From Thermoanaerobaculia bacterium (GTDB taxonomy: Bacteria > Acidobacteriota > Thermoanaerobaculia > Multivoradales > Multivoraceae), in assembly GCA_022826745.1 (NCBI GenBank), contig JAJDUI010000025.1, positions 1 to 64,000 of the forward strand: a stretch of 64,000 nucleotides of DNA, written 5' to 3'. The notes beneath the pieces were generated by a model that saw only the letters and a program-made list of their open reading frames with translations, had not been told where the DNA came from and searched no databases. A program made the position numbers and the translations under genes. Positions 20,384 through 35,608 of this stretch are shown one piece after another (the stretch's first letter is position 1; each line of letters starts with the position of its first letter).

Positions 20384-20761
20384 ATGCGCTACCGCGAGGA
20401 GCTTCCGCCAGGGTGTCCACCCGATGACGCCGACGAGGTCGAGGGGCCTCGCTCGATGTTCCGGCTCGTTCGGACGATTCCACCGACCGAAGACGACTTC
20501 AGATCCCAGCGAGCCGAGAAACCTGATCAAGTGTTTGCCGGTGTGACCGAGTGCCAAGTCCGCGGCCTGTCGGTCCATGCGGATCGCGCCGACTCCGAGC
20601 GGGTGCTGAAACTGCCGAAGATGAAAGGACGCCACGTCTGTAGACTGTCGTTGACGGCCGGGGCGGGTCGGGTTCAGCAGACCGGGCAGCGCTCCCATCA
20701 CACTTGGTGGCCGTTCGCTGATTACGACGTGTTGGCCTGTTGCGACGGTGACGTGCGATGA
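20384..20761 (+). CDS. hypothetical island protein (125 residues)
   Basis: No named family comes to mind, although short proteins with the pattern ELPPGCPPDDADEV, FRLVRTIPPTEDDFRSQRA, CQVRGLSVHAD and QQTGQRSHHTWWP recur next to defence genes as far as I recall. The conserved Cys, the SHHTWWP block and the compact size suggest a small globular domain. The ATG at 20384 keeps the ELPPGCPP block in the protein; ATG 20456 would lose it. The stop overlaps the start of the next gene (ATGA, 20758-20761), so the two probably act together. Confidence 0.72.
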   Translation: MRYREELPPGCPPDDADEVEGPRSMFRLVRTIPPTEDDFRSQRAEKPDQVFAGVTECQVRGLSVHADRADSERVLKLPKMKGRHVCRLSLTAGAGRVQQTGQRSHHTWWPFADYDVLACCDGDVR

Positions 20762-21903
20762 AGACCATCACCCACGAGGCGACCCTGTTCTGGTACGACG
20801 GGCCCCAGGTGTTCGAGGCGCGCGATGCGATCGGTGGCCACTACGTGGCGGTAGCCGTAGAACAACCACCCGGCGTGAGCCGCCATGTCGTCGTGGGTCT
20901 ACCGCCGGTGGAGCTGCACCGGCTCCGAGCCGGTGCGCTCGATCTGCGAGCGTGCCTGGTCGAGGCTGGTGCCGAGGAGTGGCACTTGACCCCTGTCGAC
21001 GCGGATTTGGCGGAGCCGGTTCCGCTCGACCTCCAAGCGGGCTCCCTTGAGGAGACGGGATTATTGCCGGACGAGGGCTTCTTTCTTCATCCCGATTCTC
21101 CGGACGAGTCGACGCTCGTCGAATCCCGGGCGCGCAACAGGCTGGTGATGGAACTGGCGGCCGAGCCTCCGGAGGCTGCCACCGAACATCGCATTCGACT
21201 CGATACGTACCTTGAGATTCTCGGCGAGGTCCAGACCCTGGTCAGGCATGCGTACAGGTCGGCGTGGCGGAAGCTGTCCAAGGACTATCGCGGCATGCTG
21301 GACCAGGACACGGGCCCCATGCTGGATGTTGTCGTTCCAGCGTCTGGCGGCTCGTTTCGAGTGCTTCTCGAGGCGACCCAGGCACCTAATCTGATTGGAG
21401 AGAGCGAGCTCGCCCGTGCCCTACGGCGGGTTGATGCGTTGTTCGAGGAAGTGGGGGAACCTGACAGGGCACTTGCGACGGTGCGGGAGCACAGGGGCCA
21501 CTTCGCGGGCTCTTATCTGAGGCTGCTCCGCGTTCTGGCAGAGCGCGAGACCAGCCTTCGGTACTCGTGGGCGGAGCCATCCGCAGACGGCGCATCACAC
21601 CGTTCGGTGACCTCAGCGGAGGCCGATCGACTCGTTCATGTGCTCTCCGAGGTTTCGAACCTGAGCACGGAGTCCGTCGAGTTGGTAGGCGATTTCGAGA
21701 AGTTCAACCGCGCTTCGGGTCTATGGGGGTTGCTCACGGAGGCAGGCAAAGTGCAGGGGAGGATCCGCGATGGCGGCCCGAGCTTGGACGGTTTGGAAGT
21801 CGGTGGCCGCTACAGATTCTCCTGCGTTGAAGAGATCGACCGGACCGAGGGTACTGGGCGAGAGAGAAGAACACTGTACTTGGAAGGGCACGATCCAGTC
21901 TGA
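20758..21903 (+). CDS. hypothetical island protein (381 residues), partner of the preceding gene
   Basis: I do not recognise a family. The N-terminal part (about 1-130) looks like a beta-rich domain (TLFWYDGPQVFEARDAIGGH, then YVAVAVEQPP) of the kind seen in small sensor or scaffold domains. The C-terminal half is mainly helical (YLEILGEVQTLVRHAYRSAW, ARALRRVDALFEEV) and ends with a segment resembling a small beta domain (GGRYRFSCVEEIDR). No nuclease, ATPase or membrane motif is visible. Tight coupling to the 125-residue gene suggests a two-gene unit, possibly a toxin-antitoxin-like or regulatory pair at the island edge. It is convergent with the helicase gene, 91 bp away. Confidence 0.75.
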   Translation: MKTITHEATLFWYDGPQVFEARDAIGGHYVAVAVEQPPGVSRHVVVGLPPVELHRLRAGALDLRACLVEAGAEEWHLTPVDADLAEPVPLDLQAGSLEETGLLPDEGFFLHPDSPDESTLVESRARNRLVMELAAEPPEAATEHRIRLDTYLEILGEVQTLVRHAYRSAWRKLSKDYRGMLDQDTGPMLDVVVPASGGSFRVLLEATQAPNLIGESELARALRRVDALFEEVGEPDRALATVREHRGHFAGSYLRLLRVLAERETSLRYSWAEPSADGASHRSVTSAEADRLVHVLSEVSNLSTESVELVGDFEKFNRASGLWGLLTEAGKVQGRIRDGGPSLDGLEVGGRYRFSCVEEIDRTEGTGRERRTLYLEGHDPV

Positions 21904-25199: not shown

Positions 25200-28160
25200 T
25201 CAGTCGGCGTCTTGCTGCCAGATCGCGATCTGTTCCGGTTCGTCGATGCGGTCCGCGAAGGCGAACCGCCGGAGATTGTAGAGGGCCTCGAAATCACTGC
25301 TGGACGCGGCGATCTCGCCCTTCAGCGCGACGCCGGTGAACGTCGCGGAAACCGGGAGCACCTCGAGCACGGCCTCGAACGCGGCGAGGAAGAGCGGATC
25401 GTCGTCGATCAGCGCCCGCTCGAGCAGGTCGCGCGCCTCTTCCAGCGACCGGTTCCGCGCCATGTGGGCGGCGTGGTGAAGAGCGTCGATCATTCCCAAG
25501 GCGCCGTCCGCGGGTCCCAGAGCGCCGCGAGCCGCGCGCTTCTCGCTGTCCCAGAGTTGAACGTTGGCGCCCTTCTTCAGCGCCAGTCTGCCGACGATCT
25601 CGCGGTCGAGGTCGGCGCCGGTGGCGCGGGCAAGCCGCAGGGCCTCGTCGTACGAGAACACAGGAGCCTTGAAGGCGTCCCAGGCCAGAACGAAGAAGGC
25701 GGTCGCCGGGTCGAGGTCGACGTTCGCCTTCAGATGAGTCAACTGCTCCAGCCGCCACCGCTTCACTTCGCGCCGGGCGACGTCGAGCGCGTCCTCGGGC
25801 GTCACGGCGTAGGGGTCGTGTTCTTCCAGTTGGAGCGTTGTCTGGCGCCCTCGCCGCCTGGCGCTGGCGGGCTGTTCCCGGGGAGTGCCGCGCCGCAGTG
25901 GCCAGTGTTCGGAGAACCGCTGCAATGCCGGGCCGAAGCAGGCGAGGTACAGGTCGACGCCGCCGATTCCGGCCTCCTGAAACTCGCCGACCCGGGCTCG
26001 GACCGCCTTGGCGACTTCGGGTTCCACGTCTTCCCAGTAGGTTGCGCCGTCGCGGAGTTCCACCGCCTGCCGGTCGTCGGGTGGCCGACAGACGAGGAAG
26101 ATCGTGCTCTTGGCTGCCGCCTTGTCCTTGATGTGCAGGCTGCCGCCGGCCTCCGTGTTGATCGGCCAGGAGGCCGTGATCCGGAATCCGGCCGTCATCA
26201 GACCGGTGGTCAAGGCGTCTCAGGCACCGGTCGCCTTGTGGGTGAACATCAAGGTCATGATGCCGTCAGGCTTCAGGACTCGCCGACACTCCTTGAAGAT
26301 CGCCGCCATCCGCTCCTGGTAGTCGCGGCCAGCCAGCGCCTTCGCGCCCTTCTGGCCCTGGAACCGCGCCCGATTAGCGACCGCCTCGTTGTCCTTGTCC
26401 GTCAGTTGGCGGCGAAACAACTCCGGGAACACGTGCCCGGCGGTGCGCTTGAGCCAGACGTAGAAGAAGTCGGAGAGTTCGGCGTACATCACGTTGTCGT
26501 AGTAGGGCGGGTCCATGACGACGACGTCGATGGAGGCGTCCTCGATGTGGTCTAGGCTGTCGGCTGGTTTGCACGTGATCGTGGTTGGCGGGCGTTCTCT
26601 CTCGGCATTGGCCACAGGGAACGACTGGCGAGCGAACAGGGGGCCGTCTTCCAAACCGTGGTCCGGATCGACTAGTTGGGCCAGTTCCCTGATGCACTTG
26701 GTCGTCTTCGCGATGGCCCAGTCGTAGCCGACGCCGGCGACCAGCGGTGCCATCTCCGCGTAGGACTAGACGAAGGCGAAGTCGTGCCGGTCGAATATCG
26801 AACGCACTCGGCCCGTCGTGTTGTCCCAGCGCCCAGCCCGGTTGTTGTAGTTCAGCAGCGTGTCGAGCGTCAAAGCCAAGTAACCGTAGGCTGCTTTCTG
26901 GGTCTCGTCGAGTGACTTGGCCGAGCGGTCCGCTTCGAGCATCTCGCTGAAGACCTCGACGCTTGTGCCGTGGCAGAGCAACTGCCGGGGCGAGAACAGA
27001 TCGCGCCATCGTCTCATCCCGTACCGGTGAGGCTCAGCCGTCTTGACTCCGTCGGGGATCCGCTCGTTCGGCACGATGTCGAACGCCTCCCATACCGGCG
27101 TCTTTTCAGCCAGACGGCTGACGATCTCCGCCGAGTTGTCGTCCTCGGGCCGCGGCGCCCGGTAACCGCGCACCCACTTCTCGCGGATCTTCCCGGTCTT
27201 CGTCCGCGTCTCGACCCGCCGTTTACAGACGACGGCGTAGAGCTGTTCGCCCATGCGGCCAGCCTGCGCCTGCTCCTTGATCTCGTCGCCGTCGATCACC
27301 CGGCCGCAGTCGGGGAACGGGCACGTCCCATCCCCTCGCGCGACCGTCCCGGCGGACTGCTCGCCGGCCGACTCCACGATCTCGAACGAGCAGACCCGGC
27401 CCGCGGTTCCGGGACCGCCGGCAACTTCTGGTCGAAGCCGCACGCCCGTTCCGTCGGGCGCGAGCCGCCAGTTAGGCGAGAGCGGCACGAGGCCTTCGCA
27501 GTAGGGGCAGGAGACGGTGCGAGCCCAGAGGTAGCCGTCCGGGCGGCAATCGACTTCAGGTTCAATCGGGAAGATCCCCGCGAGCCGTTGACGTACTTCA
27601 TTCGCGAGCGTCTCTCCGAGTGCGTGGAAGCGCTCCAGGAGAGAGTTGCCGTACTCGTTCGGCCACTCAAGAGTTGCTCGAGTAACGAGAACTGCGACCG
27701 CATTTAAGTCGTTCGCCACGGTTGGGAGCCCAAGGCGGACTGACTCGAACGGAACGCTCCCGCCGCCGGCGGTCGGGTCGAGAATCTGTGGCAAGTCCCC
27801 AAGACTCTGGCCGATCCGTTGTCTCTCGCTGCTTGATGGTGTGTAGCCGAAAGCGCGTGGGTAGCCGTATGCGGCGGCTCCGAGCCGTGTACCGCTTCGC
27901 GTCGCAGCCGCGATTCGCTTGCGGGCTTCTACAGGATCGCCGTGAATCCCAAGTGCGTGAAGGAAGTAACCGCGGTCCGTGTCCTCCGGGAGCAGCGAGG
28001 CGAGCACCGCGGCGCGCGAAGCGACCAGGGGACGCCGGGCCCACCACACGTGCAAGCGGTTCGGCGCAGGAAACGGCGTCATCGGAGTCCGTTCCCGAAG
28101 GCTCTCGATCCCCAGTTCGGTTATCGGCAGCCACCGTTCGATCAGGCGCACGTCGGCCAT
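25200..28160 (-). pseudogene. DUF1156 DNA methyltransferase interrupted by two in-frame stops
   Basis: The whole 986-codon frame is collinear with DUF1156 adenine/cytosine-N methyltransferases, but it contains TAG at 26766-26768 (codon 465) and TGA at 26220-26222 (codon 647). Fragments are 26766-28160, 26220-26753 and 25200-26213, all in one frame. DUF1156 opens with RLHVWWARRPLVASRA; the SAM motif is DPTAGGGSVPFE (128-139). A Cys-rich insert (CPYC, CPFPDC) follows, and the catalytic DPPYYDN starts at 550, in the second fragment. Both stops stand where family members appear to carry Trp (FAFxWSYAEM; xWDAL). SAM-binding and catalytic motifs are therefore on different fragments. Either nonsense mutations, sequencing errors, or readthrough explain this. 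Confidence 0.88.
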
Positions 28161-28163
28161 CCT

Positions 28164-28931
28164 TCAGATCCACTCCTGCGGCTGCCGTGCGAGGATGCGC
28201 TCGCCCGCCGGCCCGAAGTAGGAACGGGACGTGGTGAAGAACGGTGCGAGTCGGCCGCGTTCGTCCGGCGTCAGGACGGTCCGGACCCAGGTGGTCATCC
28301 CGGGCTCGTTCAGGACGTCAGCGGAGACCTCCACTAGATCGTCCCACAGCCTACGCCGAGCGTGGCGAAGCCGGTTCGCGTTCAGGTTGAGCGTCTCAAT
28401 GGAGCGTCTGGCGTCTTCCGCCATAAGGCCAGTGGCGGAACAGGCCTTGTCGTCTGGCTGGATGAACCCGTCTTCCCGCACCTTGAGGATGGCGAGTGCC
28501 GGCGGAAGCTCCCGGGGGTCCAGGAACCCGCCCCACCATTGAGCGGCCTTGGCTTGGCCGCAGCTCTCGTTGCTTCCTCGGCTGCGCCTGGGCTCGTTGG
28601 CGGCAGGAACGGGCCCGGTGCGACCCCTTCGGGGACCGCCGACTCCGAGGCAGCAGGCGACCAGGTTCGAGATGTCGAGCTCCAGGGCTCTGCCCCGCGC
28701 CTTCTCGCTGCGCGGCACGACATGCTCGACCTGCCGGCGTTGAGCCGAGATCGAGGTCTCGCAGTAGGCGCAGAGGCCATGCTGGTTGGAAGTCCACGCC
28801 TCTACGAGTTCGCGGTACGCAGTGCCGGAGTCGTGGGATCGGAACTCGTCCCAGTACGCCTCGTCGCCAACAAGGCACAAGTAGTCCGCGAGCCCCCGCG
28901 GGGGCTCGTCGATCGCCCGGACCGCTTTCAC
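28164..28931 (-). CDS. ptuB: HNH endonuclease, PtuB-like (Septu)
   Basis: 255 residues. The HNH/zinc core reads GLCAYCETSI (Cys54, Cys57), QVEHVVPRSE (Glu69-His70) and NLVACC (Asn89, Cys93-Cys94), as in the TIGR02646/PtuB family. The C-terminal half is helical (ARRSIETLNLNANRLRHARR), also typical. In Septu, PtuB is the nuclease bound by the ATPase PtuA and it attacks nucleic acid on phage infection. The ATG overlaps the stop of the AAA ATPase gene by 4 bp. The gene is complete. It ends 3 bp before the start of the DUF1156 gene, showing how tightly this pair is nested in the larger system. Confidence 0.85.
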   Translation of the reverse strand: MKAVRAIDEPPRGLADYLCLVGDEAYWDEFRSHDSGTAYRELVEAWTSNQHGLCAYCETSISAQRRQVEHVVPRSEKARGRALELDISNLVACCLGVGGPRRGRTGPVPAANEPRRSRGSNESCGQAKAAQWWGGFLDPRELPPALAILKVREDGFIQPDDKACSATGLMAEDARRSIETLNLNANRLRHARRRLWDDLVEVSADVLNEPGMTTWVRTVLTPDERGRLAPFFTTSRSYFGPAGERILARQPQEWI

Positions 28932-30238
28932 TCGGACTCTGCCATCCGCTGGAGCATCTTCCGCTGGCGGATCTCCAGGTCTGCCCGGTTGAGCGCTTGG
29001 TCGTCGGGCGATTCGCCTTCCAGCTTCGCTCGCAACGCCAGAGCTTCCTCCGACTCTCCCTGATCGCTGCTCACCAGGCGGCGGTATGCGTTGAGCGCCG
29101 TCGTGTACCAGTTGTCCGGCCGTTCGTCGACGCCCATCACGGTGCTCAGGACGTCCCCCGCCTCCAGGCCGAACGTGCTCGCCGCCGGCGCTTTGGCCAC
29201 GATACGCCCGTCGTCGTCGACCAACTCCAGAATGTGCTTCGGCTCTACCGTGGTGAGCACGGGGGAACTGTGCGTGGAGACGATGAACTGCACGTTGGGG
29301 AACGTTCGGCGAAGGTCGCCCAGGATCCGCTGCTGCCAGGAGGGGTGGAGATGCAGTTCAACCTCGTCGATCAGGACCACCGCTTCAGATTGAAGCGGAT
29401 CTTCGAGATGCGGATTGCCCTGTGCCATTCGCCGCGCGAGGTCGGCTGCGAGGGTCAACACGGCGCGACAGCCTCCGCTCAGTTGGTTGATTGTCAGGTC
29501 TTCTGACCGACCCGAGTCATGCTCAAGGGTCACCACGAAGCGAAGGGGGTTTGCCTCGATTCTCGGGTCGTCAACGCCGCCGACCATGGACGAGATGGCG
29601 GTTCGTACGGCTCGAAGTTCGCGCGACGTGCTCTCCTGGCTCACCGCCGTTCCTTTGGCGGCGAGCCTTCGCAGTGCCCGGAGTTCTTCGTTCTCCTTGG
29701 CGTAGAACCACTGGAAGAAGTGCCGGAAGTCAGTTCGCGCGGAGAGCGCCCCGTGCCAGGCATCCACTCGGTCGAACCCCTTCTCGAAGCCGCGCCGTCG
29801 CTGAGGCACGTCGAGGACCACCCGGTCCGTGTCGTAGTAGGCCCCGATGGGCAGGTCCCGGGGTTCCGCCTCGTCGAGCGTCAGGCCAGCCTCGAACAAG
29901 AGTGCTCCCAGCCGTCTACCTGGGCCGTGCTTCTTCTCCGAGATTCGGGCAAACTGCCGCCCGGTCTCTTCGCGTTGCCACGACATGCCGTCGGTCGTCG
30001 TCACGGCGACGCGCATCGATTGAGGGCCGCCCCGGCGGTCGGTCTTCAGGAACCGAACGCGGTCGTCCTTCGGCCGCAAGAAGTTCTGGATCGTGCCCAG
30101 TCCCATGGCGATCCCGCTGAGGACGCTCGTCTTTCCGCACCCGTTCACGCCGAACAGGACGGTGAGCTCCGGGTCAGGCTCAAGCACCAAGCGCTCGATG
30201 GCCCGGTAGTTCTCGATTTCGACGGAGGTGAGTTTCAT
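28928..30238 (-). CDS. ptuA: ABC/SMC-type AAA ATPase, PtuA-like (Septu)
   Basis: 436 residues, RecF/SMC-like. Walker A GVNGCGKTS at 30-38, ABC signature region NQLSGGCRAVL, Walker B VVLIDEVELHLHP, then the H-loop STHSSPVL. The tail STFGLEAGDVLSTVMGVDER, followed by a helical C-terminus, is the pattern of PtuA and of retron-Ec78-type ATPases. PtuA forms a complex with PtuB, senses infection through nucleotide state and releases the nuclease. No reverse transcriptase or ncRNA is visible next to it, so a retron is unlikely. It is followed by ptuB with a 4-bp overlap and is divergent from vsr across 272 bp. Confidence 0.85.
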   Translation of the reverse strand: MKLTSVEIENYRAIERLVLEPDPELTVLFGVNGCGKTSVLSGIAMGLGTIQNFLRPKDDRVRFLKTDRRGGPQSMRVAVTTTDGMSWQREETGRQFARISEKKHGPGRRLGALLFEAGLTLDEAEPRDLPIGAYYDTDRVVLDVPQRRRGFEKGFDRVDAWHGALSARTDFRHFFQWFYAKENEELRALRRLAAKGTAVSQESTSRELRAVRTAISSMVGGVDDPRIEANPLRFVVTLEHDSGRSEDLTINQLSGGCRAVLTLAADLARRMAQGNPHLEDPLQSEAVVLIDEVELHLHPSWQQRILGDLRRTFPNVQFIVSTHSSPVLTTVEPKHILELVDDDGRIVAKAPAASTFGLEAGDVLSTVMGVDERPDNWYTTALNAYRRLVSSDQGESEEALALRAKLEGESPDDQALNRADLEIRQRKMLQRMAESE

Positions 30239-32093: not shown

Positions 32094-33437
32094 TCACGCT
32101 GGCCGTATGGCCGGAGGTAGCCGGAGGACTCCAGGTCGTGAGAGGTAGCTGCCGGAGTGAGTGACAAGGTGCATGAGCAACTGCTCTCGAAGTCGGTAGA
32201 TCGGCCTCCAATCCACGACATCTTCCCGTGCTGCCACGACAGGAAAGCGCGCGCTGAACCGAAGCTCGAAAGGACCTTCATCGGAATGGCGGAGTAAGGC
32301 CGGGGACCTCCAGACGGACTCAGGCGGCTTGCCGCTTGAAGCGCCGTCCGGTACCTCCACGCCGAGCAGGTACGTGAGAGGGCCTGGGCGAGCCAGCACG
32401 TAGTCACACACAGCACCGATACGCACCAAGCGGGGGTTCTGGAGCGTGTCGGATCGCAGTTTGAACTCCTGCTGTGCGAGATGAGCCTGCTCGACGCCGA
32501 AGCGACTACGCAACTGCGCGTCGTCCTGCCACGCTTCGGGAAGGTCGACAACGGCACCCCAAGTGTCGGCGCCGAGGGCACCAGTCCCTGGCGCGAGATG
32601 GACCATGCGGTTGAGCTTTGCGTTGGCCTCGGGTTGAAGGCTTGAGCTATAGCTCCCGACCGTCGCTGCCTTCCATGATCCGGATTGCTGCTCAGGCGGC
32701 TCCCGATGGAGCACTTGGTCTGCAAGAAGTGGAACGAGCGCCGAACTGACCGCCGCGTGAGCGTCGCTCCGGGCCCTGTCCTCTCCAGCCGCCGCGGCTC
32801 CGAGATGTGCAAGAACGGTCCCGAGACCTCCGGCGACGTGCTCGATGGAGCGCTGGTCCTGGGGCACGCTCTCCGTGAGGGCGGAGAGCGTCGCCCCCGT
32901 TGCGGCCTGAACATCGGTCTCCCACTCCAGCAACGCGGCGAGCTGCGGCACGTCGTTGACGGCGTTCAGCAGCGCCTCGCGCAGCTCTCCCGCTGCTCCA
33001 GTGAGCAGCTCGCCGTCGGTCTTGCTGATGAATCGGGTCTTGGCCAGGGGGAGGATCTTGAGCGGGAGGGCGTGGGGTGCCGACGTACTGAAAGCCTGGT
33101 CGAGATACTGCCCGAGGTTTGCGACTTCTTCCTCGTGCGCCGTCCACACGACAAGGATGAAGGGGCCGCCTGTCCGGCTGATGTTGGTCTCAAGAAGCTC
33201 GGCGATGAGGGCGAAATGCCGAGCAGGATCGGTCGTGTAGAGAAGATCGTGGGTCAAGTGGAGATCGAGACAGAGGACTCGCACGCCTCTCAGATGGTCT
33301 TGAGCCCCGATGCCGGTTTCCTCGTTGTAGTGAATGCCTAGACAAGGTGCGCCAAGCTCTTGAAAGGCCCTCTGTAGCGCGATCAGATGGTCTTCGTTGT
33401 CATCCACGACCACGAATCTCGGTGCCGGGAAGATCAT
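32094..33437 (-). CDS. receiver-domain protein with unknown effector region
   Basis: 447 residues. The N-terminus is a response-regulator receiver: FVVVDDNEDH (Asp12, Asp13), the phospho-acceptor candidate Asp58 in VLCLDLHL, Thr99 in VVWTAHEEE, and Lys133 in LPLAKTRF. The remaining 300 residues match no output domain I know: a helical stretch (LLTGAAGELREALLNAVNDV) then an alpha/beta part ending in WRPIYRLREQLLMHLVTHSG. No helix-turn-helix, nuclease or membrane signature is visible. Its ATG overlaps the kinase stop (ATGA, 33434-33437). I infer that the kinase next door phosphorylates or otherwise controls it, and that the C-terminal part is the effector. Confidence 0.8.
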   Translation of the reverse strand: MIFPAPRFVVVDDNEDHLIALQRAFQELGAPCLGIHYNEETGIGAQDHLRGVRVLCLDLHLTHDLLYTTDPARHFALIAELLETNISRTGGPFILVVWTAHEEEVANLGQYLDQAFSTSAPHALPLKILPLAKTRFISKTDGELLTGAAGELREALLNAVNDVPQLAALLEWETDVQAATGATLSALTESVPQDQRSIEHVAGGLGTVLAHLGAAAAGEDRARSDAHAAVSSALVPLLADQVLHREPPEQQSGSWKAATVGSYSSSLQPEANAKLNRMVHLAPGTGALGADTWGAVVDLPEAWQDDAQLRSRFGVEQAHLAQQEFKLRSDTLQNPRLVRIGAVCDYVLARPGPLTYLLGVEVPDGASSGKPPESVWRSPALLRHSDEGPFELRFSARFPVVAAREDVVDWRPIYRLREQLLMHLVTHSGSYLSRPGVLRLPPAIRPA

Positions 33438-35608
33438 CGAGCTGTCCCTCTCGGAAACACCATGGCAAGTAGGGCGCCGTTGAAGTCGGTGGGCGTTTCT
33501 GACTGGCTGGCCGTTGGGAAGGACAGGTGGCCATCGGACAACTCCATCACGAGGTTCGCATAGTAGAGGCCCAGGCCCATGCCCTCGGGGCGCCGACTGA
33601 AGAACGGCATCACGATCTCGGACGGTTCGTCAACGAAGCCCGTGCCGTTGTCGGCAACGATTATGGCCGGCCCGCCGTCGAACTCCGGCTTGACGTCGAC
33701 GTAGAGCGCTCTGTGGCCGGCACTCTCGTCGGGCCAGCGGACCCTGAGCCAGTAGAACGAGTTGTCCAAAAGGTTGTTCAGCGCGCCGAGTGCGAGGCCG
33801 AACACGAAGGTCGACTCGATCTCGGCTGCGTCTTCGTTCAGCGCGTTGCAAACCAAGCGGACTTTGTGCTTGCGGAAGCGCACGCGATTGATGTCGCACA
33901 CTCGGCGGGCGAGCTTGGTGAGGCTGTTGGGCTTCCTGGGACCTTTGCGTAGGAGTTCCGTGAATCCCTCGAGGATCCGGGCCAGTTCCCGGGCCCGAAC
34001 GCGGATGACGCCGCGCTCACCCCCGGACTCGATCAACTCGCAGAGACCCCGTACACCATGTTCAACCTCGTGGAAGATCACGGCCAGGCCCACGCCCGAC
34101 AAGCCGGCTCTCAGCATGGAGTCCCTCAGCTCGTCGTATTCCTGCGCCACGTCGTCGATCAGAGGCGTCAACTCTTTTGCATGGCTGGTTCTCTGTGCTG
34201 CCGCTCTCAGCTTCTTCAGCGCGCCGCCGAGGCGCCGGGTTTCGTGAGTGCGTCCGGTGGAAGTGAGATCTCGAATCCTGCGCTTGTCCTTCGTGCGTTC
34301 GGCTTCAAGCGGTGTCAGCGCCGCGCGGACGATGCTCCTCAGCCGTTTCTGGACCGGGTTCTCGACGAAGCCCTCGCGGTTGGTCTTCTCTTTCAGACCG
34401 TCGCTGTCGGCGAGGGACAGGTCGATTGCGCCGACGACGATGTTCCGGCTGATACCCCGCCGGGGGCGGTTTACGCGACTCAGGTCCAGGCCCAGCCAGT
34501 CGTCCTCCGGCTCGCCGTACGTATAGACGCGGATGCCGTCTCGGTAGACTCTGACACCGCCGTTTCCGTCGAGGTACTGCTCCAGGAGATGACCCTCGGC
34601 CATCTTGCTCAACACTTCTCGGTCGCGATCGAACACGCGAAACTGGCCTTCGACTGGGCCGATCTCGTCCGCAATCGAAGCATCGGCTGTCACTTTACGA
34701 ACTCGCCTTAGTCGCCGTTTTTCCTTGCCGTCAAGTTCGTCCGGGTCGCGTTCAGACTCGACCAGGAGGGGCTGCGAGTGCGCACTGGCTGCTCTGGGTT
34801 CTAGCTGAATGCCGGGTACTCCCCGGAAGCTGTAGTCCCAGTCCAGCAGGCCGTCGACGAATTGAAAGCGGTAGCGCCAGGGGGCACGTTCCAGTAGCGT
34901 GGCCGCGTCGGGGATGTCATCGAGCCAGTCTTTGCCGGGCACGGCAAGGCGCGTCTCGAAACGGTCCGGTCGAGTTGCGTAGGGCGACGCGATAGTCGTG
35001 ACCTGCCGTTGCAGGCGGCGAACCTCGCCACGGGTCCACTTATCCCTTAGTTCGGATACGGTGATCTTGGTTCCGCTTACGTCGCCGGGGAAGACCTCCG
35101 GGTCTCGCGTAGCTACTTCGACCCGCGCATCGGCCAGTTCCTTTTCACTGATCAAGTGCCTCCAGTCGATCGAAACGACACATTCGAGTTGACCTGCAGA
35201 CCGCGTTACCAGTTCAATACGGTTGCCCAGCTTGTGCGCGGCGAACCGCCCGACGCCCTTCTCGCCCAGCGGGAGCCGGCCCTTCGGGGTGCGCTGCAGC
35301 GCCTTACGCTGGCGCTCCCGGTGGTCGTGGCCTGGAACGAGCCAGATGTTGCGTATGACGTTGAAGGACATGCCTTCTCCGTCGTCCTCCACGACGATAG
35401 ACGCGGTTGGTTTGTCTACTTCCTGGAGCGTCACAGTCACCGTCGTCGCGTCGGCGTCGTAGCCATTCTTGACGAGCTCGAATACCGCCAAGCGGGCCGA
35501 GCCGATTAGTTGGTCGCCGAGCAGCTGCAGCAGGCGTGCGCGAGGCCGGAAGGGGAGCTTCAGTGGCTTCGCGTCGGAAGAGCTCGATGTGGACGCGTCA
35601 GCGGTCAC
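33434..35608 (-). CDS. protein with two GHKL ATPase modules (HSP90/MutL-like plus histidine-kinase-like)
   Basis: 724 residues. The N-terminal module looks like HSP90/MutL/MORC: N-box ELVKNGYDADA (44-54), DDGEGM (75-80) and GEKGVGRFAAHKLG (115-128). The C-terminal module looks like a histidine kinase: an H-box-like IFHEVEHGVRG (511-521), N-box NNLLDN (611-616), ADNGTGF (652-658), MPFFSRRP and GMGLGLYYA (676-684). No membrane segments, so it is cytosolic. It is followed by the receiver protein with a 4-bp overlap. The N-terminal ATPase may sense DNA or protein and drive signalling through the C-terminal kinase; this is inference. Sensor kinases with an added HSP90-like module are unusual. Confidence 0.85.
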   Translation of the reverse strand: MTADASTSSSSDAKPLKLPFRPRARLLQLLGDQLIGSARLAVFELVKNGYDADATTVTVTLQEVDKPTASIVVEDDGEGMSFNVIRNIWLVPGHDHRERQRKALQRTPKGRLPLGEKGVGRFAAHKLGNRIELVTRSAGQLECVVSIDWRHLISEKELADARVEVATRDPEVFPGDVSGTKITVSELRDKWTRGEVRRLQRQVTTIASPYATRPDRFETRLAVPGKDWLDDIPDAATLLERAPWRYRFQFVDGLLDWDYSFRGVPGIQLEPRAASAHSQPLLVESERDPDELDGKEKRRLRRVRKVTADASIADEIGPVEGQFRVFDRDREVLSKMAEGHLLEQYLDGNGGVRVYRDGIRVYTYGEPEDDWLGLDLSRVNRPRRGISRNIVVGAIDLSLADSDGLKEKTNREGFVENPVQKRLRSIVRAALTPLEAERTKDKRRIRDLTSTGRTHETRRLGGALKKLRAAAQRTSHAKELTPLIDDVAQEYDELRDSMLRAGLSGVGLAVIFHEVEHGVRGLCELIESGGERGVIRVRARELARILEGFTELLRKGPRKPNSLTKLARRVCDINRVRFRKHKVRLVCNALNEDAAEIESTFVFGLALGALNNLLDNSFYWLRVRWPDESAGHRALYVDVKPEFDGGPAIIVADNGTGFVDEPSEIVMPFFSRRPEGMGLGLYYANLVMELSDGHLSFPTASQSETPTDFNGALLAMVFPRGTAR

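What the first reader, a model, noticed from the sequence alone, without database searches (positions are those of the whole stretch)
20384..21903. Unrecognised translationally coupled gene pair at the island edge
A 125-residue protein with the SHHTWWP and ELPPGCPP blocks overlaps by 4 bp a 381-residue protein of no known family, preceded by a palindrome cluster. It runs opposite to the rest of the island and has no known motif in either gene. This is the sort of cryptic two-gene unit that has often turned out to be a defence or toxin-antitoxin system.
Basis: partly seen in the sequence, partly recalled or inferred. Interest (0 to 1): 0.6.

Follow-up and report, generated by a model that had tools for sequence, protein, structure and literature searches.

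The report
Divergent PD-T4-10-type toxin-antitoxin pair
Two overlapping genes at the edge of a bacterial defence island look like a distant cousin of PD-T4-10, a known toxin-antitoxin system that stops phages; the predicted antitoxin appears to have a fold usually seen in toxins and the predicted toxin carries an exchangeable killing end, which makes the pair more interesting than an ordinary member.

Summary
The pair is real. Gene A (20384-20761 +, 125 aa) and gene B (20758-21903 +, 381 aa) overlap by 4 bp, have diverged under purifying selection, and keep a low GC3 beside high-GC3 housekeeping genes.

It is not of an unknown family. A matches PADLOC PD-T4-10_A, the antitoxin of the phage-defence toxin-antitoxin system PD-T4-10 (E 1.1e-8). 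B is a divergent DUF6575 protein, homologous over its length to DUF6575 proteins of Rhodococcus and Oscillatoria plasmids that also sit behind an A gene. In 63 of 63 opened loci where DUF6575 carries a further C-terminal part, an A gene lies directly upstream (two copies broken); two stand-alone DUF6575 genes have none.

Two points go beyond the known system. The predicted fold of A (pLDDT 91.6) resembles ADP-ribosyltransferases in all 50 structure rows listed, though profile comparison shows no sequence link. DUF6575 is a module: its C-terminal part varies between PDC-M63B-like (here), a prophage type and two helicase fusions.

Best reading: an abortive-infection toxin-antitoxin pair, A antitoxin and B toxin. 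Toxicity and phage protection come from the literature, not shown here.

The parts
20384..20761 (+). gene A, predicted antitoxin (125 aa), PD-T4-10_A relative, predicted ADP-ribosyltransferase-like fold
   Evidence: PADLOC PDLC04023 E 1.1e-8; pLDDT 91.6 model; structure rows
20462..20464 (+). Arg27 of A, in predicted strand 1
   Evidence: invariant in 24 of 24 aligned A proteins; strand E23-29
20693..20713 (+). SHHTWWP block of A (residues 104-110)
   Evidence: His105, Thr107 and Trp109 invariant in 24 of 24
20758..20761 (+). 4-bp ATGA overlap of A stop and B start
   Evidence: same overlap in 44 of 47 viral loci
20758..21903 (+). gene B, predicted toxin (381 aa), divergent DUF6575 protein
   Evidence: Pfam DUF6575 E 0.019 here, 4.6e-4 and 1.3e-3 in same-genus orthologues; profile-profile match to DUF6575 proteins E 2.8e-12
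20758..21087 (+). N-terminal DUF6575-like module of B (about residues 1-110)
   Evidence: P16, F19 and P104 invariant across 12 DUF6575 proteins; better-modelled part
21205..21693 (+). C-terminal region of B resembling PADLOC candidate PDC-M63B (residues 150-312)
   Evidence: PDLC04749 E 5.9e-5; Arthrobacter relative 1.4e-8

Best explanation
The pair is a divergent PD-T4-10-type toxin-antitoxin module that acts by abortive infection. Translation of the two proteins is coupled through the ATGA overlap. A, a small protein with a predicted ADP-ribosyltransferase-like fold, keeps B silent, most likely by engaging B's N-terminal DUF6575 module. B's C-terminal part, a domain shared with PDC-M63B, is the harmful part. 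When a phage upsets A or its grip on B, B is freed and stops the cell before the phage can multiply. Shown here: the two genes, their homology to the PD-T4-10 family, their constant pairing and the modular build of B. Taken from the literature on PD-T4-10: B toxic, A neutralising, defence against T-even phages. Inferred: docking through DUF6575, the harmful part being C-terminal, and the trigger.
For: A against PADLOC PD-T4-10_A: E 1.1e-8. B orthologues against DUF6575: 4.6e-4 and 1.3e-3. Profile of B's clade against Rhodococcus/Oscillatoria DUF6575 proteins: 97.6 %, E 2.8e-12 over 337 columns; the reversed control gave E 0.08. Those plasmid proteins lie directly behind A homologues, and the Rhodococcus, Rahnella, Pantoea and E. 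coli B proteins match PD-T4-10_B over the DUF6575 part. Pairing: 47 of 47 viral loci fetched by B alone have A upstream, 44 of 47 with a 4-bp overlap. Stand-alone DUF6575 without effector: 0 of 2 has A. Purifying selection on both genes. Published function of PD-T4-10: PMC9519451.
Against: P0002 itself matched no PD-T4-10_B model and DUF6575 only at E 0.019, below its curated cut-off. Its C-terminal part is not that of the PD-T4-10_B models as far as HMMER sees. PDC-M63AB, which shares that C-terminal domain, showed no anti-phage activity in its E. coli host (PMC12409345). In G363 A carries an in-frame stop and in L056 it is frameshifted while B stays open, which an essential antitoxin would not predict unless B is also dead or the assembly is wrong. 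The model of B is poor (pLDDT 45.9).
Confidence: 0.78

Rival explanations
1. Type VII-like variant of the same system: A is an active ADP-ribosyltransferase-fold enzyme that silences B by chemically modifying it, instead of only binding it.
For: All 50 listed structure rows for A are ADP-ribosyltransferase-superfamily proteins by name or, for a few, by recall. R27, S63, T100, H105, T107 and W109 are invariant in 24 of 24 A proteins, more like an active site than a passive surface.
Against: Best Z is only 7.0, and the tool warns that Z under 8 can be a common arrangement. Foldseek best E is 0.61. Profile comparison with Tpt1 and RES families finds nothing (E 0.085-0.23). NAD+ binding is untested.
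Confidence: 0.2
2. Roles reversed: A is the toxin, as ADP-ribosyltransferase folds in toxin-antitoxin pairs usually are, and B is the antitoxin.
For: Solved toxins with this fold (RES, ParT, MbcT) appear among the structure rows.
Against: In PD-T4-10 the second gene was toxic and the first could not be deleted. DUF6575 genes lacking the C-terminal part also lack A. A is always 5' of B, and is attached to DUF6575-helicases.
Confidence: 0.08
3. Not a toxin-antitoxin pair here but a regulatory pair serving the neighbouring Hma island.
For: In G001 the order AMP-binding gene, BCCT transporter, A, B, HmaA is the same, and A-DUF6575 is fused to helicases elsewhere.
Against: G011 has HmaA at the same place without A/B; G019 has A/B with no Hma match in the fetched flank; relatives in prophages show no Hma gene in the opened loci.
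Confidence: 0.08

Closest known systems
PD-T4-10 (Vassallo 2022, PMC9519451)
   Same: Two overlapping genes; first gene matches PD-T4-10_A; second shares the DUF6575-type N-terminal region with PD-T4-10_B models through its relatives
   Different: P0002 itself does not match PD-T4-10_B models; its C-terminal part resembles PDC-M63B; host is an Acidobacteriota genome, not a gammaproteobacterium
PDC-M63 (PADLOC candidate; tested in PMC12409345 without activity)
   Same: C-terminal region of B (residues 150-312)
   Different: No M63A match for A; the M63B models (309 positions) are matched only by B's C-terminal part, so the DUF6575 module is not part of the match
ADP-ribosyltransferase superfamily (Tpt1/KptA, RES toxins)
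   Same: Predicted fold of A; Arg in the first strand
   Different: No sequence-profile similarity; by homology A acts as antitoxin, not as toxin or RNA-repair enzyme

Membership tests
PD-T4-10 toxin-antitoxin system | two-gene unit with overlapping ORFs, A before B | tested here: met
   4-bp overlap
PD-T4-10 toxin-antitoxin system | first protein homologous to PD-T4-10A | tested here: met
   PDLC04023 E 1.1e-8, residues 9-117
PD-T4-10 toxin-antitoxin system | second protein homologous to PD-T4-10B | tested here: inconclusive
   no direct model hit; linked through DUF6575 relatives that do match PD-T4-10_B in the N-terminal part; C-terminal part unmatched
PD-T4-10 toxin-antitoxin system | B toxic alone and neutralised by A | not testable with these tools
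   published for the prototype only
PD-T4-10 toxin-antitoxin system | phage protection by abortive infection | not testable with these tools
   published for the prototype only
DUF6575 (PF20215) | Pfam model over its curated cut-off (26.6 bits) | tested here: not met
   P0002 14.8 bits, orthologues 18.6 and 20.1 bits; profile-profile homology to clear members E 2.8e-12: a divergent relative, not a filed member
ADP-ribosyltransferase superfamily (for A) | ART fold | tested here: inconclusive
   all 50 listed rows ART-like, best Z 7.0, rmsd 3.2, 92 residues; Foldseek best E 0.61
ADP-ribosyltransferase superfamily (for A) | sequence-profile link to a known ART family | tested here: not met
   hhalign against Tpt1 (6 sequences) and RES (12 sequences) E 0.085-0.23
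ADP-ribosyltransferase superfamily (for A) | NAD+ binding or transferase activity | not testable with these tools
   none

The most novel reading that the evidence does not exclude
A family of two-gene defence units in which an ADP-ribosyltransferase-fold protein is the antitoxin and silences its partner by modifying or clamping the DUF6575 module. DUF6575 serves as a common socket onto which different effectors have been plugged: a PDC-M63B-like domain here, a different domain in enterobacterial prophages, and SNF2 or DEAD helicases in other Acidobacteriota.
Probability: 0.2. Interest if true: 0.8.

Novelty: new variant of a known kind. Interest (0 to 1): 0.5.

Why it matters
PD-T4-10 was reported with no predicted function for either protein. 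If its antitoxin family has an ADP-ribosyltransferase fold, a fold best known from toxins would be the guard and not the weapon, and simple mutants would test this. If DUF6575 is a socket for exchangeable effectors, the search for such systems can start from the A-DUF6575 signature and reach helicase-bearing systems that present models do not count as PD-T4-10.

Tried and rejected
Chance ORFs: rejected by orthologues, dN/dS and the pairing census. Palindromes as a regulatory part: short and not kept in relatives. Promoter and terminator scan: 0 promoters; one terminator-like site, as many as in shuffles. HEPN motif in B: an R-x4-H (R243-H248) is kept in the genus but not in the Rhodococcus or Oscillatoria relatives (alignment); not pursued. 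Solved-structure sequence searches: no meaningful hit for A (best E 0.32) and none for B. B structure: model too poor for its C-terminal part; best Z 3.9 for the N-terminal part, so the fold of B is open. PHROGs and NCBIfam: nothing useful for either protein. PDC-M63B in 247 Acidobacteriota genomes: 0, and none in the control genomes either, so uninformative. Phage GenBank records: no match for A, for the Rahnella B or for an E. coli A. The prototype PD-T4-10 sequence itself was not obtained; PADLOC models stood in for it.

Rows dropped before counts: 41 Rhizobium plasmid records with weak matches to A (those listed E 0.07 to 0.6; annotated mostly glutamine amidotransferase, one opened); G307 (arginine- and serine-rich false match); a Salmonella plasmid fragment covering only the end of B at the edge of a 4-kb record. 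One shuffled-column control (shuffle 1) gave an absurd hhalign score over 2-3 columns and was set aside as a gap artefact. One of 13 RES sequences was left out because its translation held a stop.

Full report
WHAT IS THERE. The window holds two ORFs on the plus strand, A (20384-20761, 125 aa) and B (20758-21903, 381 aa), sharing ATGA. Upstream lie an AMP-binding enzyme and a BCCT transporter on the same strand. Downstream and convergent lies the SNF2-type helicase of an Hma-like defence cluster (HmaA), then a DUF1156 methylase (HmaB), Septu PtuB/PtuA, and further on a GHKL-ATPase protein and a DUF499 protein. GC3 is 0.71/0.73 for A/B against 0.96/0.93 for the two upstream housekeeping genes, which fits a later arrival.

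ARE THE GENES REAL. Orthologous pairs in the same order occur in 4 of 21 genomes of the genus, own genome included (B next to A). Against the two closer relatives dN/dS is 0.166 and 0.145 for A and 0.159 and 0.160 for B (computed). In G001 the order AMP-binding, BCCT, A, B, HmaA is identical; in G015 and G019 the pair follows the AMP-binding gene directly, with no BCCT match between. In G011 the stretch between BCCT and HmaA holds another minus-strand ORF in place of A/B, so this edge of the island is an exchangeable slot.

WHICH FAMILY. A matches PADLOC PD-T4-10_A at E 1.1e-8 over residues 9-117; B matches PDC-M63B at 5.9e-5 over residues 150-312 and Pfam DUF6575 weakly at 0.019. The same-genus B proteins match DUF6575 at 4.6e-4 and 1.3e-3, still under Pfam's cut-off. 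A tblastn search of plasmids with A found three convincing records, Oscillatoria, Rhodococcus and Rahnella. In all three the next gene is a DUF6575 protein. The Rahnella, E. coli, Pantoea and Rhodococcus B proteins match PD-T4-10_B, always within the N-terminal 130 or so residues. A profile of the window's B clade aligns with the Rhodococcus and Oscillatoria B proteins over nearly the whole length (E 2.8e-12; reversed control E 0.08), but with the prophage-type B proteins only over the N-terminal half (E 5.2e-5). So B is a distant DUF6575 protein with another C-terminal half than the prophage type.

PAIRING CENSUS. Searching viral contigs with prophage-type B alone gave 47 loci. An HMM of A finds A directly upstream in 47 of 47: 44 overlap B by 4 bp, 1 by 1 bp, 2 are separated by 10 bp; one of the 44, L056, has A frameshifted. 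In 4 opened of 11 matching E. coli records the gene before DUF6575 is A, in prophage surroundings. On plasmids 5 of 5 full-length cases have A, including an unannotated one in Arthrobacter. In Acidobacteriota 7 of 7 do: window, G001, G015, G019, G026, G214, G363. In G363 A is interrupted by an in-frame stop. Together that is 63 of 63, two with a broken A; three plasmid cases and some of the Acidobacteriota were found through A and are not independent, and many prophage copies are near-identical (45 distinct A sequences). Two stand-alone DUF6575 genes of 134 and 160 aa, on a Mycobacteroides plasmid and a viral contig, lack both the C-terminal part and A.

MODULARITY. In G026 DUF6575 (residues 34-152) heads a 1230-aa SNF2 helicase that best matches PADLOC C3a139 (HKD+Snf2); in G214 it heads an 813-aa DEAD helicase encoded behind a type IIG restriction enzyme and A. 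Both have A upstream. Arthrobacter B matches PDC-M63B at 1.4e-8. The simplest view is that A goes with DUF6575 and the C-terminal part is exchanged; that DUF6575 is the docking site is inference.

FOLD OF A. The AlphaFold2 model of A from 24 sequences has pLDDT 91.6 and pTM 0.86. Aligned to 457 candidate chains by VIA-align 2, the 50 listed entries are Tpt1/KptA (Z up to 7.0, rmsd 3.2, 92 residues), RES toxins (5.5), ParT (5.1), bacterial and Rhs ADP-ribosylating toxins and PARP-type domains; for a few rows, such as IcmQ and Tse2, the ADP-ribosyltransferase-like fold is recalled, not stated in the row. Invariant residues in 24 of 24 include R27 in strand 1, S63 in strand 2 and H105, T107, W109 in a late strand. 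From the first aligned residues of several rows, R27 would fall at the position of the strand-1 arginine of arginine-type ADP-ribosyltransferases; this is inference from ranges and recall. Against it: no Z reaches 8, Foldseek's best E is 0.61, the viral library gives no E under 0.13 though several ADP-ribosyltransferases and PARPs are among its rows, and profile comparison with Tpt1 and RES from Acidobacteriota shows nothing. I put the fold at about 75-80 % and enzymatic action as antitoxin at about 20 %.

FUNCTION. For PD-T4-10 the second protein was toxic, the first neutralised it and could not be deleted, and loss of the toxin abolished T4 resistance (PMC9519451, passages read). The same paper lists DUF6575 among the domains found; that this refers to PD-T4-10B is my inference. 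PDC-M63AB, which shares B's C-terminal domain, showed no activity against the phages tested in its E. coli host (PMC12409345, passages read). By homology the window pair is read as toxin (B) and antitoxin (A) acting by abortive infection.

LITERATURE. In the held library 'PD-T4-10' and 'DUF6575' occur in one paper each, the same one; searches for an ADP-ribosyltransferase-fold antitoxin in this setting found nothing, and a wider search listed three papers, of which I saw only the listing. Subscription papers and preprints are not covered, so a later study may exist.

VERDICT. A new, divergent variant of a known kind. The unusual parts, an ADP-ribosyltransferase-like antitoxin and an exchangeable effector behind DUF6575, are predictions that simple experiments can settle.

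Noticed in passing
window 25200-28160 -: HmaB (DUF1156 methylase) reads through in one frame but holds two in-frame stops, where the G001 homologue has tryptophan; the Hma cluster here looks decayed while A/B is under purifying selection.
   Followed up: partly
window 28164-30238 -: A Septu-type PtuB/PtuA pair sits between HmaB and the rest of the Hma-like cluster, a nested defence system.
   Followed up: no
L029:3131-3613 and L124:2944-3348: Stand-alone DUF6575 genes (160 and 134 aa) on a viral contig and a Mycobacteroides plasmid, without effector part and without A; possible decoys or counter-defence, untested.
   Followed up: partly
L078:2268-3174: In G011 the slot between BCCT and HmaA holds a different minus-strand ORF, by eye with a DUF433-like C-terminal part, next to the start of what may be a truncated partner (family recalled, not searched).
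   Followed up: no
L024:1476-5168 and L023:2814-5255: DUF6575 fused to an SNF2 helicase and to a DEAD helicase, each with an A gene upstream; the second stands in an operon with a type IIG restriction enzyme.
   Followed up: partly
L025:3885-4304: A of G363 has an in-frame stop although its B (389 aa) is open.
   Followed up: no
window 33434-35608 -: A 724-aa protein with a GHKL-ATPase domain and weak similarity to BbrUII/HgiDII-type restriction enzymes (E 2e-25, below cut-off).
   Followed up: no
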